A stretch of 61,904 bases of DNA from Desulfoluna sp. (GTDB taxonomy: Bacteria > Desulfobacterota > Desulfobacteria > Desulfobacterales > Desulfolunaceae). The stretch is from the NCBI RefSeq assembly GCF_030145185.1, contig NZ_JAQYWB010000033.1:1-61904 (forward strand), written 5' to 3'. The position numbers were made by a program, and so were the translations under genes. The notes beneath the pieces were generated by a model. That model saw nothing but the letters and a program-made list of their open reading frames with translations, did no database searches and was not told the origin of the DNA. This document shows, in pieces, positions 14,490-26,559 of the stretch. Within the stretch, counting starts at the first letter, position 1. Each line of letters starts with the position of its first letter.

Positions 14490-14641
14490 ATCAAATCCCC
14501 CTAACTTTAGATTTGAGTGCGGTGAACCCCGAAAACAAAGGGCATATTTGGTACCTGCTTTCTCTCGCCTGCGTGACCGAGTGGCCTCGATCCGCATGAA
14601 ATGAGTGAAGGAAGAACCACAAAACGCTGCTTTATCTTGAT

Positions 14642-14657
14642 TACAATTTCCGTGCCT
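14642..14657 (-). promoter_or_regulatory. Sigma-54-type promoter of the lactate permease operon
   Basis: The minus strand reads GGCACGGAAATTGTA, matching the -24/-12 consensus TGGCACG-N4-TTGCW apart from GT for GC at -12. The same TTGTA variant occurs at the other two candidate sigma-54 promoters in this window (20682-20697 and 25970-25985). Expected start of transcription is near 14631. Confidence 0.55.
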
Positions 14658-14766: not shown

Positions 14767-15643
14767 CTCCTGAAAAACAAACTGAGCCTTCAGAACACTT
14801 GATATACCCGAGGTTAAGAGTTCTAAAAAAAGGACATCGCCGTGAAATCGTGTTCTCCCATAATGAACGAATGGCCCGCCCCCCCTGGAGAGAGACGCCC
14901 ACCGATACCCACAGAGTAACAGGTTGATTTTAAAGTCATTATACCCAATGCCGCAGCCGTAACGGCAGGGTATTTTTGAGCAGACAAACCAAAAAATCCC
15001 GCCCTGTGGGCCCTGGTCTTTTTTTCAGGACACAATCGTTAAAAAAGAGCCCTGCCCTTTTCGCCCACCCAAGGGGGCGTGTCCTGTGAAAAGGAACGCC
15101 TCAGAGAGCCACGGAACCGACAAGCATGCTTTCGTCCCCCCCGAACTGTGGTTCAGCAATAAAAGCCCTCGAGCCACGCCTCACGGATGCCTGAAACCAT
15201 CGTTATGAACCGGCCTGTCCGCTGGCATGAATCTTGATTGGTTGAAACAGAAGAGGAAGAGAAAAAGAGAAAAGGGTCTTCGCGCAGAGTCACCTGGGCA
15301 ATGACGAGATGCCTGGGGCGTGGCGAAGGAATATTTTTTTTGATAAGCATGCCAGCATAAATTCGTGTAACCTATTTTACAATGCATCTGCTCCATGGGG
15401 CCCATCATCTCGCCCCATGCGCCCGGTGCAGGTTTCTTATAGAAAAGGATACGCGCAGGCGTATGGCCTGTTCAGCATGGCGTGGAACCACGCCGAAACC
15501 AAGGCCAACACAGCGAATGACGTTCAAGGCAGGACCATTTGATTATAATACATTGATTTATTGAAAAAAGATTTATTTTTTTAATAAGATCGACCGCATG
15601 CGTTCCTCCATGCGAGCCGCCTTTTACAAAGGAGAGAAAGGTC

Positions 15644-18600
15644 ATGATTCGCGCGGTTACCCTCTGGCTTGTGGCAACAATGGCTCTTTTCATTGCAGCC
15701 ACTCCAGCCATGGCCGGAAAAACAAATATTCTAATTTTAAACTCCTATGAAAACGGCTACGCCTGGTCCGACAACATCATGGACGGGATCCGGGCCGTCT
15801 TCAAGGAGAGTGGCGTGCCCATTGAACTGCAGATCGAATACATGGACTCCAAACGGTATCGTGGGGAGGCCGTGGAAGAGACCCTGCTCTCCCTTTACCG
15901 CCACAAGCTTACCTTTTTCCGTCCTGATATCGTCATCGCCTCAGACAACAACGCCTTCCGCTTTGCCATCGCTCACCGACAAACTCTGTTTCCAGACGTC
16001 CCCCTCGTCTTCTGCGGGGTCAACGACTACACCCCCGAGCTGCTCCATGGCGAGACCCAGGTCACCGGTGTGGCGGAATCCGTGGATGTCTCCGGAAACA
16101 TCAACATCGCCTTGAAGCTTCACCCCACCCGCAACCGGATTGTGGTGATCACCGACTCCTCGGCCACCGGCCGGGCCATCAGCCGACAAATCCAAAAAGG
16201 CTACCCGGACAAAAGCCGCAAGCTCCGCATCGACTTCATCAACATGGCCAACCGGGACATCCTTTATCAGACGGTCCGGGCGGCAACGCCGGATACCATC
16301 TTCTTTTTTATCCCCCAGTACAGCATCGGGGATGGCACCTTTTACGGCACCGCCGATATCGTTCCGGACCTGGAACGGAACACCCGCGCCCCCATCTACG
16401 GTTTCTGGAAATTTCTCGTGGGTGACGGCACCGTGGGAGGCCGTGTCACGAGCGGCCACCTTCATGGGGAGACCGCCGCAAAAATGGCCCTTGAGATCTT
16501 AAAGGGCACCCCCATTTCCAACCTGCCCGTCTCCTACGACGCCCAATACCGCTGGCTTTTCGACTACACCCAGCTTCAAAAATTCAGTATTCCCCTGGCC
16601 GCCCTCCCCGAAGAGGCCGAAGTGCTCCACATGCCACAGCCCTTCTACCAACTCGACCGCGACCTCTTCTGGGTACTGGCCATCAGCTTTGCCACCCTCA
16701 CCTTGGCCTTCATCTTCCTGGTCATGAACATCGCCTTACGCTGGCGGGTCGAGGAGGACCTCAAGGATCAGCTCTCCTTTCTCGAGATCTTCATGGAGAC
16801 GGTCCCCATTCCCATCTATTTTAAGGACATGAACGGCCACTACCAGGGCATAAACCGAGAGTTTGAACGCTGGTTCGGGGTCAACCGGGCGGAGATTATC
16901 GGCCACACCGACGATCTCTTTTATCCAAAAAATGTACCCCCCCTCTCCGATGAGAGCGACTCCCACCTAACGGCCGAGAACGGGGTCCGGGTCTACCACT
17001 CCCGCATCTTCAAACACGGCAGCGATCATCACCATGTGATCCTGCACAAAGCCACCTACCGCAACGCCAAAAACGAAATCTGCGGGCTGGTGGGGGCCAT
17101 CCTCGACATCAACGACATGAAACGGGCCCAGTCAGACCTGCAAAAAGCGGAAGAGCGATACCGAAGCATCTTTGAAAATGCCACCAAGGGGATCTTCTTG
17201 TCGGATCTCACCGGGCGGATCCTCAACATCAACAACGCCTTTGCTCAAATGCTGGGCTACAGCGACCGACGGGAGGCCCTCACCCATATCGACAAGATTG
17301 AAAAGCACTACGGCTCCAGGGAGACCCAGAAACGGTTCCGGGATATGATCCGCATCGGCAAAGATGTGACAGGCCTGGAGATCGAATTTTACAACATCCA
17401 GGGGGAAAAACGGTGGGCCTCCCTCAACGCCAGCCTGGTGAGAAACAAACACGGCGAGTTGGAGCACGTGGAGGGCATCGGTGAGGACATCACCCAGAGA
17501 AAAATGGCAGAGATTGCCATGGAAGAGTCCAAGAACAAGCTTCAGATCGTCCTCGACAACATCCCCCAGCTTGTCTACTGGCAGGACAACGCCCTCACCT
17601 ATGTGGGGGGAAACCGCTCCTTCAAGCTCTTCTACGACCTCGACCCCGCTAAAAATGTCAACGTCACCTACACCGACATCATGGCAGAGCCCGAAGATAT
17701 CCGCACCTCCTGCGAGGTCGACCGCACCGTGGTCCAGTTCGGAAAACCGCGCTACCGAATTCGTCGAAACATCAAAAAAGTTAACGGGAAGGAGGTGTGC
17801 CTGGAGATCAACAAGATCCCCTTACGCGATGAAAACGGCAACATCACAGGCATTCTGGGCACGGCCGAGGACATCACCAAAAAGGTCAACCTTGAAAAGC
17901 AACTCGTGCAATCCCAGAAGATGGAAGCCCTGGGCACCCTCTCTGGGGGCATCGCCCACGACTTCAACAACATCCTCACCTCCATCATCAACTCCACCGA
18001 GCTGGCCTTAGAGGACATCGATCCTCAGGCCATTGCCGCGGAAGACCTCCGGCGGGTGCTTAAGGCCAGCTCACGGGGCAGTGAACTGGTCAACCGGATC
18101 CTCGCCTTCAGCCGCCCGTCACGCGAAGAGTTTCAAATCGTCAACGTCACCGACGTGGTGGGAGAGGCCCTCTCCCTCTTCCGGTCCACCATCACGGGCA
18201 ACATAGAGCTAAACGAAGTGAAGAAGTGTTCCGAGTGTATCTGCCTGGCCGACCCCACCCAATTGCACCAGATCATCATGAACCTGTGCACCAACTCCTT
18301 CCATGCCATGAAGAAGGGAGGCGGGTCCATCACCGTCTCCGTGGCCCCGGCCGAAGTGGACGACCACCAGGCCGCTCTGATCACCATCCAGACAGGCGAA
18401 TACTGCCGGATTACGATCTCGGACAATGGCCCCGGAATTTCTGCCGACGTGATGGACAAAATCTTCGACCCCTTTTTCACCACCAAAGAGAAGGGGGTGG
18501 GAACAGGCCTTGGCCTCGCGGTGGTTCATGGTATACTGAAAGGGCATCGCGGAGGGATCCATGTAAGCAGCCTCCCCGGGGTGGAGACCACCTTTGATAT

Positions 18601-19045
18601 CTACCTTCCGAGAACGGAAAAACCAGACACACAAACCGCGCAAGGCGTTCTGCCCCCGGCAGCCGGCAAGGGAACCATTCTTTTTGTAGAAGATGATGAA
18701 GAGCAGCGGCAGACGGTTCCCCGAGTCCTGGAACGCCTGGGCTACCATGTCCTGGTGGCCAACGACGCCGCCATGGCCCTTGTCACCGTCACCGAGCAGA
18801 CAGAGGCCATCGATCTGGTGATCACCGACTTCGACATGCCCGGAGACAACGGATTCGTCCTGGCGACCAAGCTCTGCAACATCGCGCCGGACTGCCCGGT
18901 CATCATCGTCTCAGGACGCCAGAAAAGCCTCACCATGGATCGAACAGACAACGTCCAAAGCGTTCTCATTAAGCCGTACAACCGACAAAGCCTGTCGGCA
19001 ACCATCAACACCGTCCTGCATCGAGTTCCCAAGGAGATCCAATGA
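15644..19045 (+). CDS. Hybrid sensor histidine kinase with ABC-type binding domain
   Basis: This 1133-residue membrane kinase begins with a signal segment (1-25), then a periplasmic ABC substrate-binding-like domain (about 27-330), a transmembrane helix (about 346-368), three PAS-type domains (about 380-505, 510-630, 635-755), a HisKA domain with phosphoacceptor H772 in GGIAHDFNN, an ATPase domain (DNGPGIS) and a C-terminal receiver with D1062. It probably senses a small ligand and phosphorylates the sigma-54 activator whose start overlaps its stop by four bases. Its place beside the lactate permease resembles the LurS-LurR pair of Desulfovibrio; the ligand itself is unknown. AAAGGAGAGAAAGG precedes the ATG. 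Confidence 0.85.
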
Positions 19046-20502
19046 CCACCACCATCCTCATCATTGACGACGACATCGAGTTTTGTGAAACCATGGAAAG
19101 CCTGGTGAGAAGGATGGAGCACCGCTGCTTCACGGCCCACACCCTGAAGGAGGGATCGGACTACCTGGAAGGGCACTCGGTGGATGTGGTCTTCCTTGAC
19201 GTGCGCCTGCCCGACGGCAACGGACTGACCGCCCTCCCCCTCATCAAAAAAGCCCCGTCCGAACCCGAGGTGATCATCTTAACCGGCCAGGGCGACCCGG
19301 ATGGGGCAGAGCTGGCCATTCAGGGCGGAGTCTGGGACTACCTGGTCAAGCCCACCTCCATCAAACAGACCCGCCTCAGCCTCTCCCGGGCTCTGAAGTA
19401 CCGGGAAGAAAAACAGGCCGAAACGCCGGTGGCCCTGAACCTGGACAACATCATCGGGGCCAGCCCTTCCATGAAAAAATGCTTTGACCTCGTGGCCAAA
19501 GCCGCGGTCTCCAACTCCCAGGTCCTCATCACCGGTGAAACCGGCACCGGCAAAGAGCTCTTTGCCCGTACCATCCACGAAAACAGCCCCCGCGCTGAAA
19601 ACAACTTTGTCATCGTGGATTGTGCCTCCCTGACCGAAACCCTCCTGGAGAGCACCCTCTTCGGTCACAGAAAGGGCGCCTTTACCGGTGCGGACGCCGA
19701 TCGGACCGGCCTGGTGAAAGTGGCCGACGGCGGCACCCTTTTCCTCGATGAGGTTGGGGACATGCCCCTGTCCATCCAGCGCTCTTTCTTGAGGGTGCTC
19801 CAGGAGAAACGATTCCGGCCTGTGGGCCAAACCCAGGAGGTGACCAGTAATTTTCGACTCATCGCCGCCACCAACCGAAATCTCGAAGAGATGGTGGAGC
19901 AGGGGACCTTCCGAAGGGATCTCCTCTTTCGTCTCTGGGCGATTAACCTGGAGCTGCCCCCCGTACGAAACCGCCAGGGAGACATCAAGCGCCTGGCCAT
20001 GTTCTTCATCGACCGGCTCTGCGAGGAGTACACCGTCCCCAACAAAGGCTTTGATACCGACTTCTTTGAGACCCTCTCCGCCTACAAATGGCCGGGCAAC
20101 ATCCGGGAGCTCTTCAACGTCCTGGAGATGGCCTTTATCACCTCGGGTCGCACCTGCACCCTCTATGCCATGGACCTGCCCAGCCACATCCGGATCAAGG
20201 TGGCCAAGGCCTCCCTCAGACAAGGCACGACCGAGGCCCCGAAATCCTCAGCGCATGCCGAAGACACCGACTCCCCGGTCTCCCGAATTCTGGCTGAAAC
20301 CGGTGTGGAGGTGACCCACCATTTCGGCAACCGTATCCCGGAAATCAAAGAATTCAAGGGCATCATGGAAGAACAATACTTAAAGGAGCTGATTCGCCAT
20401 ACCGGAGGAAACGCCAAAAAGATCATGCAGATCTCCGGGCTCTCGAAATCCCATTTTTACACGCTCTTAAAAAAGAAGGAGATCTCCATCTCATCGGAAT
20501 AG
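19042..20502 (+). CDS. NtrC-family sigma-54-dependent response regulator (LurR-like)
   Basis: The 486-residue protein has a receiver domain with phosphoacceptor D53, an AAA+ domain with Walker A GETGTGKE (165-172) and the sigma-54 contact loop GAFTGA (212-217), Walker B GGTLFLDEVGD and a Fis-type helix-turn-helix at the C terminus (GNAKKIMQISGLSKSHFYTL). When phosphorylated it should activate sigma-54 promoters. Three such promoters are visible nearby, at the permease, pyruvate oxidoreductase and a candidate small RNA. The start overlaps the kinase gene (ATGA). All residues needed for activation are intact. Confidence 0.9.
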   Translation: MTTTILIIDDDIEFCETMESLVRRMEHRCFTAHTLKEGSDYLEGHSVDVVFLDVRLPDGNGLTALPLIKKAPSEPEVIILTGQGDPDGAELAIQGGVWDYLVKPTSIKQTRLSLSRALKYREEKQAETPVALNLDNIIGASPSMKKCFDLVAKAAVSNSQVLITGETGTGKELFARTIHENSPRAENNFVIVDCASLTETLLESTLFGHRKGAFTGADADRTGLVKVADGGTLFLDEVGDMPLSIQRSFLRVLQEKRFRPVGQTQEVTSNFRLIAATNRNLEEMVEQGTFRRDLLFRLWAINLELPPVRNRQGDIKRLAMFFIDRLCEEYTVPNKGFDTDFFETLSAYKWPGNIRELFNVLEMAFITSGRTCTLYAMDLPSHIRIKVAKASLRQGTTEAPKSSAHAEDTDSPVSRILAETGVEVTHHFGNRIPEIKEFKGIMEEQYLKELIRHTGGNAKKIMQISGLSKSHFYTLLKKKEISISSE

Positions 20503-20681
20503 GCCCCTGCAGGACCTGAGAAACGCCCCGGCCCGCCGGTCAGCGGGGTACTGAATACCGGACTTTTGGTCCTCTTTTTCATAAAAATGTTCAGCCCCAG
20601 AGACCCTTTCCCCTGCAGATCTTCAGGAACCATGCCCCCCAAAACCCTATCTCCGGGCGTGATACACTTTTCTATTGTACA

Positions 20682-20697
20682 TGGCACAATAATTGTA
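20682..20697 (+). promoter_or_regulatory. Sigma-54-type promoter of the candidate small RNA
   Basis: TGGCACAATAATTGTA gives the -24 GG and a -12 TTGTA with the correct spacing, the same variant as at the permease and pyruvate oxidoreductase genes. A sigma-70-like reading (TTGTAC then TATATT with a 15-base spacer) is also possible at 20676-20701. Start of transcription is expected near 20708. Confidence 0.5.
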
Positions 20698-20707
20698 TAT
20701 TTTAAAG

Positions 20708-20825
20708 GCAACCTGTTAAATTCTCTTTCTCCTGCTGGGTTTAACAGTGTTACACAAAAATACTCCAAAAACTGCGTCTGATATGAGAGTTCCCATTCGG
20801 GAACTCTCATATCAATCTCTTTTTC
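20708..20825 (+). ncRNA. Candidate small RNA downstream of the sigma-54 activator
   Basis: Between the activator gene and the Dabb gene there is no credible open frame, yet a promoter-like site is followed by two RNA hairpins. The first pairs CTGTTAAA (20713-20720) with TTTAACAG (20740-20747) and exposes a C/U-rich loop containing CTCTTTCTCCT, able to pair with Shine-Dalgarno sequences. The second is a perfect 16-bp stem (20779-20794 with 20799-20814) followed by ATCTCTTTTTC, which resembles a terminator. The transcript would be about 115 bases. The remainder of the 20503-21060 gap shows nothing recognisable. Expression is inferred only. Confidence 0.45.
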
Positions 20826-21060
20826 ATTCAAAAAAAAGAGCCCCATGACCAGCCGTGCAGCGACCCGCCCTCCCGAGCGATTCGTCATCCAAACGCTGCA
20901 CATTCCTCCACCTCACACGTTTAACCGGCTGTCATCAATCAGGAAGAAACCGACGGGTTGGGATGTCCCCCCCCATGCGTCACATACATACGGATAAAAA
21001 ATAACAGATCTTTCGTGGATTCTTTTAAGAAGGGATCCCACTCAGGACACAGGAGGAATG

Positions 21061-21363
21061 ATGCTCAAACATATTGTCATGCTGAAACTCAAAGACGAGG
21101 CCAAAGGGGCCAGCGCCGCCGAAAACGCGGTGAAGTTAAAAACCATGTTAGACGCCCTGGTGGGCAAAATTGCCGAAATCCGATCTCTTGAGGTGGGCAT
21201 CAACCTCTTCTCCAACCGCCAGACCGCTCACCTCTCCCTTTATGCCGAGTTTGACAGCGAAGAGGATCTGAACCGATACGCCAACCACCCGGACCATCAG
21301 AGAGTGGTGGCCTTCCTTCAACAGGTGATGGATGAGCGGCGTGTTGTCGATTACCACGCCTGA
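21061..21363 (+). CDS. Dabb-family stress-responsive A/B barrel protein
   Basis: The 100-residue protein matches the dimeric alpha/beta barrel (Dabb) domain: it opens with LKHIVMLKLKDEA, has the long helix that follows, the strand IRSLEVGINL, and ends with the typical HPDHQRVVAFLQQVMDERRVVDY. Members occur as stress proteins and as domains of small enzymes in bacteria and plants; no substrate can be assigned. AGGAGG precedes two ATG codons at 21058 and 21061; the second is chosen because the first leaves a single base of spacing. It is monocistronic and is followed by a terminator at 21427. Confidence 0.8.
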   Translation: MLKHIVMLKLKDEAKGASAAENAVKLKTMLDALVGKIAEIRSLEVGINLFSNRQTAHLSLYAEFDSEEDLNRYANHPDHQRVVAFLQQVMDERRVVDYHA

Positions 21364-22051: not shown

Positions 22052-25969
<3,918 letters not shown>

Positions 25970-25985
25970 TACAAAAGTCGTGCCA
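25970..25985 (-). promoter_or_regulatory. Sigma-54-type promoter of pyruvate oxidoreductase
   Basis: The minus strand reads TGGCACGACTTTTGTA, a near-perfect -24/-12 promoter (TGGCACG-N4-TTGCW) with the same GT variation at -12 as the permease promoter. Transcription would begin near 25959. Confidence 0.65.
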
Positions 25986-26346: not shown

Positions 26347-26559
26347 GTGTCAACGGCAAAAAAATTCCGCGAATATAACCAATATGTTAATGAAGCATCC
26401 CTCTTTTTTAACACCTTTCATGCGCAACGAAAAGTCCGAATTTCAGAACTGGAAGTATGGAAAAAAGGAATCCAGGGTTACCGCGAGGGGAAGGTGCCCT
26501 ATTGGGCTGCCTTTCACCTTCCATCCACGAACCAAAAAATAAAAAACCCGCCCCGGTGA
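26347..26559 (+). CDS. Doubtful 70-residue open frame
   Basis: A GTG-initiated frame encodes a 70-residue peptide rich in aromatic and basic residues with a protein-like middle (SELEVWKKGIQGYREGKVPY). It lies in the 1.2-kb gap between the pyruvate oxidoreductase and lut genes and its end runs into the lut terminator stem. I see no ribosome binding site and do not recognise it. It could be a remnant of a gene or chance. Nothing else is seen in 25990-26530. Confidence 0.2.
   Translation: MSTAKKFREYNQYVNEASLFFNTFHAQRKVRISELEVWKKGIQGYREGKVPYWAAFHLPSTNQKIKNPPR

What the first reader, a model, noticed from the sequence alone, without database searches (positions are those of the whole stretch)
20682..20825. 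Candidate sigma-54-driven small RNA beside the activator
In a gap with no gene, a sigma-54-type promoter is followed by a hairpin exposing a C/U-rich loop (CTCTTTCTCCT) and a perfect 16-bp stem with a T-rich tail. The loop could pair with Shine-Dalgarno regions. I know of no described RNA at this place. If real, it would let the lactate system regulate other mRNAs.
Basis: partly seen in the sequence, partly recalled or inferred. Interest (0 to 1): 0.7.

Follow-up and report, generated by a model that had tools for sequence, protein, structure and literature searches.

The report
Lactate-linked sigma-54 small RNA in Desulfoluna
Next to a lactate-type regulator gene in the sulfate-reducing bacterium Desulfoluna lies an almost unchanging small RNA gene, probably switched on by that regulator; it looks real and undescribed, but small RNAs placed like this are already known in related bacteria and its target is unknown.

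Summary
In detail: at 20682-20825 lie a sigma-54-type promoter (TGGCAC-N5-TTGTA), a hairpin with a C/U-rich loop and a perfect 16-bp stem. The RNA core (69 nt) is 94-96% identical in 5 of 5 same-genus genomes, against 75-84% for the regulator gene and 40-61% for flanks. Stem 2 covaries: 8 of 15 pairs changed on both sides, none broken in the 5 genomes counted. Folding and wobble pairs point to the plus strand. Kinase, regulator, RNA, Dabb and PFOR keep their order in 6 of 6 genomes. The promoter shares a TTGT -12 element with PFOR and permease promoters, and LurR-type sites lie upstream. It is probably a small RNA of a LurR-like lactate regulon in Desulfoluna; samples of 389 genomes each of order and class gave no credible copy elsewhere. 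Pairing with ribosome sites is unproven: no selected target was found, and Pfam Hfq was not detected. Main rival: a leader of the downstream Dabb gene. Desulfovibrio vulgaris already has sigma-54 ncRNAs downstream of regulator genes, so this is a new member of a known kind.

The parts
15644..19045 (+). Hybrid sensor histidine kinase (ABC_sub_bind sensor domain, PAS domains, HisKA, HATPase_c, receiver): LurS-like
   Evidence: Pfam; orthologues in 5 of 5 other genomes of the genus
19042..20502 (+). NtrC-family response regulator with GAFTGA loop, the likely activator: LurR-like
   Evidence: Pfam; GAFTGA found; 81-90% identical in 5 of 5 other genomes of the genus
20548..20563 (.). LurR-type binding site 1 (GTACTGAATACCGGAC, 9.9 bits)
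   Evidence: Matrix from 5 published D. vulgaris LurR sites; column-shuffled control 1 of 2000; 6 other window positions score higher
20569..20584 (.). LurR-type binding site 2 (GTCCTCTTTTTCATAA, 8.3 bits), 21 bp from site 1; overlaps a small hairpin that may end the regulator mRNA
20682..20697 (+). Sigma-54-type promoter TGGCAC-N5-TTGTA (-24/-12)
   Evidence: kept in 6 of 6 genomes
20708..20825 (+). Small RNA; start inferred from the promoter (12 nt past the -12 element, a recalled rule), end inferred from hairpin 2
   Evidence: Fold z -8.5; conserved core; covariance model strong hits only in the genus
20710..20751 (+). Hairpin 1, 14 pairs with one bulged U
20724..20736 (+). Invariant 13-nt loop TCTTTCTCCTGCT, complementary to Shine-Dalgarno-like sequence
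   Evidence: Identical in 6 of 6 genomes
20752..20778 (+). A-rich, nearly invariant single-stranded linker
20779..20814 (+). Hairpin 2, 16 perfect pairs in the window, terminator-like; covaries
20815..20825 (+). 3' tail AATCTCTTTTT; the U-run is not conserved, AATCTC nearly is
21058..21363 (+). Dabb (A/B barrel) protein gene downstream
   Evidence: Pfam PF07876; same place in 6 of 6 genomes and in 3 genomes of another family
25968..25985 (-). Sigma-54-type promoter of PFOR with the same TTGT -12 variant
   Evidence: 6 of 6 genomes of the genus
14640..14657 (-). Sigma-54-type promoter of lactate permease with the same TTGT variant
   Evidence: TTGT in 4 of 5 genomes of the genus scanned (G005 reads TTGA, G003 not scanned); in 3 of 3 genomes of the second family the best permease site does not read TTGT
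26434..26449 (.). LurR-type site upstream of PFOR (11.3 bits)
15016..15031 (.). LurR-type site between lactate permease and kinase (11.5 bits)

Best explanation
It is a trans-acting small RNA of about 115 nt belonging to the regulon of a LurS/LurR-like lactate two-component system. Inferred chain: the kinase phosphorylates the NtrC-type regulator; the regulator binds sites about 100-135 bp upstream of the -24 element; with sigma-54 RNA polymerase it starts the RNA at about 20708; transcription ends after hairpin 2. The invariant loop UCUUUCUCCUGCU, held open by hairpin 1, then pairs with G/A-rich ribosome-binding regions of mRNAs and lowers their translation while lactate is used. Shown by sequence: promoter, hairpins, RNA strand, conservation, synteny, shared promoter type. 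Inferred: transcription, the 3' end, control by this particular regulator, and the pairing step, which is the weakest.
For: Core identity to the window 94-96% in 5 of 5 relatives, against 75-84% in the last 900 nt of the regulator gene, 40-61% upstream and 41-50% downstream. Conservation resumes at 20709-20710, where a sigma-54 promoter at 20682 would start a transcript. Hairpin 2: 8 of 15 pairs with changes on both sides, 100% of 74 cells paired, 0 of 500 shuffles. Strand: the variable and wobble pairs are G-U or U-G only on plus, and hairpin 1 folds better than shuffles only on plus (0 and 4 of 200 shuffles as good on plus, 45 and 138 of 200 on minus, window and G002). Promoter in 6 of 6, sharing the TTGT variant with PFOR (6 of 6) and lactate permease (4 of 5) promoters of the genus; the published D. 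vulgaris por promoter also reads TTGT. LurR-type sites of at least 9.9 bits lie upstream of the promoter in 6 of 6 genomes of the genus and in the same gap of 3 of 3 genomes of a second family; 7 of 61889 window positions, this one included, reach that score.
Against: No transcript data. The U-tract after hairpin 2 is poor in 5 of 6 genomes, and in 1 of 6 (G004) the left arm of hairpin 2 is missing as assembled. No target stands out. Pfam Hfq matched 0 of 6 genomes, so a usual partner for pairing RNAs is absent or unrecognised. The LurR-type sites here are of middling score: 6 window positions score higher, some not near lactate genes, and in G001 the two best sites of the 15-kb locus lie elsewhere. 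In the second family the same promoter position precedes a different structured RNA close to Dabb, which hints at a Dabb leader. The -12 element departs from the consensus. No LurR protein sequence was held, so the regulator's orthology to LurR was not tested by sequence.
Confidence: 0.62

Rival explanations
1. It is the 5' leader of the Dabb gene: the sigma-54 promoter serves Dabb, and the hairpins form an attenuator or stabilising leader; any short RNA is only the stopped leader.
For: Dabb follows in 6 of 6 genomes of the genus and in 3 of 3 genomes of another family with the same gene order, where a sigma-54-type promoter with TTGC at -12 would start a different conserved structured RNA about 210-220 nt before Dabb. 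The U-tract of hairpin 2 is weak in 5 of 6. In the window no sigma-70-like promoter was found on the plus strand between the RNA and Dabb, and no sigma-54-like site scoring 13 or more.
Against: The Dabb start lies 314-517 nt beyond the start of the loop motif, and the DNA between is poorly conserved. In 4 of 6 genomes a second strong hairpin pair, with a T-run in some, lies between. The most conserved part is a loop and linker, not anything next to the Dabb start; pairing of the loop with the Dabb start beats all but 4-11 of 200 shuffled loops in 3 of 6 genomes but not in the other 3 (52-97 of 200).
Confidence: 0.22
2. It is a decoy RNA that binds and titrates a protein (the way CrcZ works), not an mRNA-pairing RNA.
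For: Both arms of hairpin 1 and the A-rich linker are almost invariant, which is more than a seed alone needs. In Pseudomonas the NtrC-type activator CbrB directly activates CrcZ and CrcY, which sequester Crc; that crcZ lies next to cbrB is recalled.
Against: Pfam Hfq found in 0 of 6 genomes. The window RNA has a single GGA, at 20800 inside the stem of hairpin 2, so a CsrA decoy is unlikely (motif recalled).
Confidence: 0.12
3. Nothing is made: the hairpins are DNA features or relics.
For: No expression data were available.
Against: Strong conservation confined to the predicted transcript and its promoter, compensatory changes and strand-specific wobble pairs.
Confidence: 0.04

Closest known systems
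sigma-54 ncRNAs downstream of DVU0679 (Dv_sRNA2) and DVU0653 in Desulfovibrio vulgaris (PMC3333781, PMC4641369; passages seen)
   Same: sulfate reducer; sigma-54-dependent ncRNA downstream of a response regulator gene and assigned to that regulator; function of Dv_sRNA2 stated as unknown
   Different: other regulators, not the lactate one; their sequences were not held here, so similarity of the RNAs was not tested
LurS/LurR lactate regulon of D. vulgaris (PMC6456213; passages seen)
   Same: two-component system beside lactate genes; 16-bp site type; por promoter with TTGT -12; lactate permease and por (PFOR) operon as targets
   Different: no ncRNA is among the LurR (DVU3023) targets in the table passage of PMC4641369; Desulfoluna adds a small RNA
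CrcZ/CrcY of Pseudomonas (PMC6296734; passages seen)
   Same: a sigma-54-dependent NtrC-type activator (CbrB) makes small RNAs linked to carbon use
   Different: CrcZ/CrcY sequester Crc; no Hfq found here; sequences not compared
Anti-Shine-Dalgarno loop sRNAs of rhizobia, such as NfeR1 (PMC10746234, PMC3927594; search listing only)
   Same: C/U-rich loops able to meet ribosome sites (recalled, beyond the motif term of the search)
   Different: different motif, lineage and promoter; one such loop here

Membership tests
sigma-54-driven ncRNA downstream of its response regulator (sulfate reducers) | sigma-54-type promoter in the gap after an NtrC-type regulator gene | tested here: met
   6 of 6 genomes; -12 C replaced by T
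sigma-54-driven ncRNA downstream of its response regulator (sulfate reducers) | binding site of that regulator upstream of the promoter | tested here: inconclusive
   LurR-type sites present, but the regulator's own motif was not measured
sigma-54-driven ncRNA downstream of its response regulator (sulfate reducers) | non-coding, structured, conserved RNA | tested here: met
   the minus-strand ORF 20457-20903 is not conserved: 1-nt indel in 4 of 4 relatives aligned and 5 of 5
sigma-54-driven ncRNA downstream of its response regulator (sulfate reducers) | transcript seen | not testable with these tools
   no expression data
LurR regulon | regulator orthologous to LurR DVU3023 | tested here: inconclusive
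   domains, lactate synteny and site type agree; LurR sequence not held
CrcZ/CrcY | works through Crc/Hfq, so Hfq should be present (Hfq part recalled) | tested here: not met
   Pfam PF17209: 0 of 6 genomes; control rings in 5 of 14
Any Rfam family | reaches gathering score | tested here: not met
   only a tRNA in the window; in the gap the 7 weak matches are all on the minus strand, best E 0.41; none in 8 related loci
Anti-Shine-Dalgarno sRNA | loop pairs with ribosome sites of real targets | tested here: inconclusive
   complementarity exists; no selected target
Intrinsic terminator | stem followed by U-run | tested here: inconclusive
   met in the window; poor U-run in the other 5 of 6 genomes

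The most novel reading that the evidence does not exclude
The gap behind LurR-like regulators is a regulatory slot in which lineages place different sigma-54-driven structured RNAs: Desulfoluna an Hfq-free RNA with an invariant anti-ribosome-site loop that retunes translation of many energy-metabolism mRNAs when lactate is present, and a second family an unrelated multi-stem RNA at the same spot.
Probability: 0.25. Interest if true: 0.72.

Novelty: new member of a known kind. Interest (0 to 1): 0.5.

Why it matters
If transcribed, it would add a post-transcriptional arm to lactate control in sulfate reducers, where the central lactate pathway of Desulfovibrio is known to be under LurR. It gives a defined, nearly invariant RNA in named isolates (D. 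spongiiphila, D. limicola, D. butyratoxydans) in which to ask how small RNAs work in bacteria where Hfq was not detected. It also suggests that regulator-neighbour sigma-54 RNAs are commoner in sulfate reducers than the few listed for D. vulgaris.

Tried and rejected
Wider distribution: blastn in 96 genomes including the window's own and the covariance model in 389 genomes of the order and 389 of the class (the samples overlap and were scored with strict filters) gave strong hits only in the genus. Two weak hits (G134, E 0.007; G068, E 0.09, E-values for one genome) are what several hundred genomes give by chance. The G134 hit has a short hairpin with a pyrimidine-rich loop but lies inside a 547-aa open frame and lacks the conserved loop; G068 was not examined. 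The model rests on 5 similar sequences and would miss distant relatives.

Other regulators: same-family regulators of other genera (G006, two copies; G007), two Desulfoluna paralogues, G171 and G280 were considered. The downstream 700-800 nt of six of these seven were read by eye and no similar RNA was seen; G280's was not printed.

AGGAGAAAG before ATG was commoner than its reversed control in 6 of 6 genomes (for example 30 against 9 in G000), as expected of any ribosome site. Of that pattern all 28 places of G000 and 7 of other genomes were fetched, and 12 more places, partly of the other pattern; this is no genome-wide target prediction. hdrA was shared by 6 of 6, but its site is identical in G006 and G007, where no such RNA was found. 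The atpE site was seen in 2 genomes. Among local genes single cases beat shuffles (kinase in G002: 1 of 200; regulator in G005: 2 of 200; Dabb in G005, G002, G001: 4, 6, 11 of 200), but none did so in all 6 genomes; these were not corrected for the number of tests.

Rfam matches below threshold are taken as chance.

Alignment slips: the G005 row was on the wrong strand; corrected. G004 was left out of A3, the covariance model and the pair counts because its left arm of hairpin 2 is missing as held.

Full report
Observation. TGGCACAATAATTGTA at 20682-20697 fits the -24/-12 layout of sigma-54 promoters except for T in place of C in the -12 element. By score alone it is not special: 7 places in the window, this one included, reach its score, and shuffled DNA gives a mean of 3.0. 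Downstream, 118 nt fold with z -8.5 and 0 of 200 shuffles as good. Hairpin 1 exposes TCTTTCTCCTGCT; hairpin 2 is a perfect 16-bp stem.

Conservation. The window is from Desulfoluna or a very close relative. One search found 8 named relatives by part of the regulator protein; the five closest are D. butyratoxydans MSL71, D. limicola ASN36, D. spongiiphila AA1 and two MAGs not named as Desulfoluna, and their contigs have the same lengths as those of the five same-genus genomes G005, G001, G002, G004 and G003. I call all six 'the genus'. All 5 relatives carry the RNA. In all 6 the order is kinase, regulator, RNA, Dabb, a small 89-aa protein, PFOR on the other strand. Identity to the window is 94-96% in the 69-nt core, 75-84% in the last 900 nt of the regulator gene, 59-79% in the promoter, 40-61% upstream and 41-50% downstream. 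Conservation resumes within a few bases of the start site that a sigma-54 promoter at 20682 predicts, about 20708 (the 12-nt rule is recalled).

Structure and strand. In five genomes hairpin 2 keeps all 74 scored cells paired, with 8 of 15 pairs changed on both sides; 0 of 500 shuffles reach this, and sliding the partner by 1-3 columns leaves 39-53% paired. The sixth genome, G004, lacks the left arm as assembled and was left out of that count. Hairpin 1 hardly varies; its one variable pair is A-U or G-U. The wobble pairs of hairpin 1, and U-G in hairpin 2 of G003, are pairs only on the plus strand. Hairpin 1 folds well only on plus (window: -12.0 against -7.2 kcal/mol, 0 against 45 of 200 shuffles as good; G002: 4 against 138 of 200). 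A minus-strand ORF covers the place, but a 1-nt length difference in 4 of 4 relatives aligned breaks its frame.

Regulon. The window holds lactate permease, a FAD oxidase and an Fe-S protein on the left, and PFOR and LUD proteins on the right. The regulator has receiver, sigma-54 activation domain and GAFTGA. With a matrix from five published LurR sites (quoted), two sites 21 bp apart score 9.9 and 8.3 upstream of the promoter. The window has 7 positions at 9.9 or more among 61889, this one the lowest of them; two of the others lie between permease and kinase and upstream of PFOR, the other four were not tied to lactate genes. A column-shuffled matrix did as well in this gap in 1 of 2000 trials. 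A site of at least 9.9 bits is in this gap in 6 of 6 genomes of the genus and 3 of 3 genomes of a second family. In G001, G002 and G005 the two sites keep their places to the base, in G004 within 5 bp, with the second weaker (7.5-8.3 bits); in G003 the sites are at other places, and in G001 two better sites lie elsewhere in the locus. Part of this stretch may be kept because it also forms a small terminator-like hairpin. The PFOR promoter reads TGGCA(C/T)GACTTTTGTATG in 6 of 6 genomes; the permease promoter has TTGT in 4 of 5 scanned; the RNA promoter has TTGT in 6 of 6. In that scan T was allowed at -12 on purpose, and in the second family neither permease nor gap promoter reads TTGT. The D. 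vulgaris por promoter reads TTGTTA at the same place. Together this makes the RNA a likely member of one lactate regulon. The regulator was not compared with LurR itself.

Beyond the genus. Of 291 genomes of the order, 13 had a regulator match at E 1e-160 or better. Three of them, of another family (G127, G091, G032), have the same order: permease and FAD oxidase leftward, then kinase, regulator, gap, Dabb. Their gap holds a sigma-54-type promoter (scores 15.0-15.5), LurR-type sites and a different structured RNA just before Dabb. So the promoter slot is shared while the RNA is not. This supports control by the neighbouring regulator, and it is also the best argument for the rival that the promoter exists for Dabb. 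In four genomes of the genus another single-copy hairpin pair lies between the RNA and Dabb, which makes simple run-through there less likely.

How it works. The chain regulator, sigma-54 promoter, RNA is well supported by sequence but not by expression. For the action of the RNA the loop is the best clue: it is invariant, single-stranded and complementary to Shine-Dalgarno-like sequence. But Shine-Dalgarno sequences are G/A-rich in general, so such complementarity is cheap. Tests for selected targets were negative or uninformative. Pfam Hfq was found in 0 of 6 genomes while the control rang in 5 of 14 well-known genomes. A protein decoy remains possible.

Known ground. Rfam has nothing at this place above threshold. 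A full-text search for Desulfoluna with small RNA found 0 papers. In D. vulgaris, DVU0679 targets the sRNA Dv_sRNA2 downstream of its own gene, and the sigma-54 regulome counts 4 ncRNAs including those downstream of DVU0653 and DVU0679. The kind is therefore known. The lactate regulator DVU3023 is listed there with protein-coding targets only. The verdict is a new, well-supported member of a known kind, interest 0.5.

Noticed in passing
L033:7560-7680 (G001), with copies in G002, G004, G005 between the RNA and Dabb: A second element, one copy per genome: a hairpin GGUUCCCU..GGGGAACC followed by a long stem around CCCGGCAUC..GAUGCCGGG; 5 of 29 predicted pairs changed on both sides, 3 broken in one of 4 sequences. 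Not matched in the window genome, G003, G006 or G007. Possibly another RNA or a Dabb attenuator.
   Followed up: partly
L138:8299-8470, L139:8293-8465, L140:7835-8010: In another family a different structured RNA (two short hairpins and an almost invariant long stem) follows a sigma-54-type promoter in the same regulator-Dabb gap.
   Followed up: partly
Genomes G000-G005: No Pfam Hfq match in 6 of 6 genomes, including the single-contig D. limicola genome.
   Followed up: partly
window 25968-25985 (-) and 14640-14657 (-): PFOR and lactate permease carry sigma-54-type promoters with the same TTGT -12 variant: 6 of 6 and 4 of 5 genomes of the genus.
   Followed up: yes
L146, L170, L171, L173, L174: hdrA-like gene with an in-frame stop after residue 59, where HdrA proteins often have Cys or selenocysteine (recalled); its ribosome site and first codons are the same in 6 of 6 genomes of the genus and in G006/G007.
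   Followed up: no
L006 around 1610-1625 (G004): The left arm of hairpin 2 is missing in this MAG, either a collapsed inverted repeat in the assembly or a real deletion.
   Followed up: no
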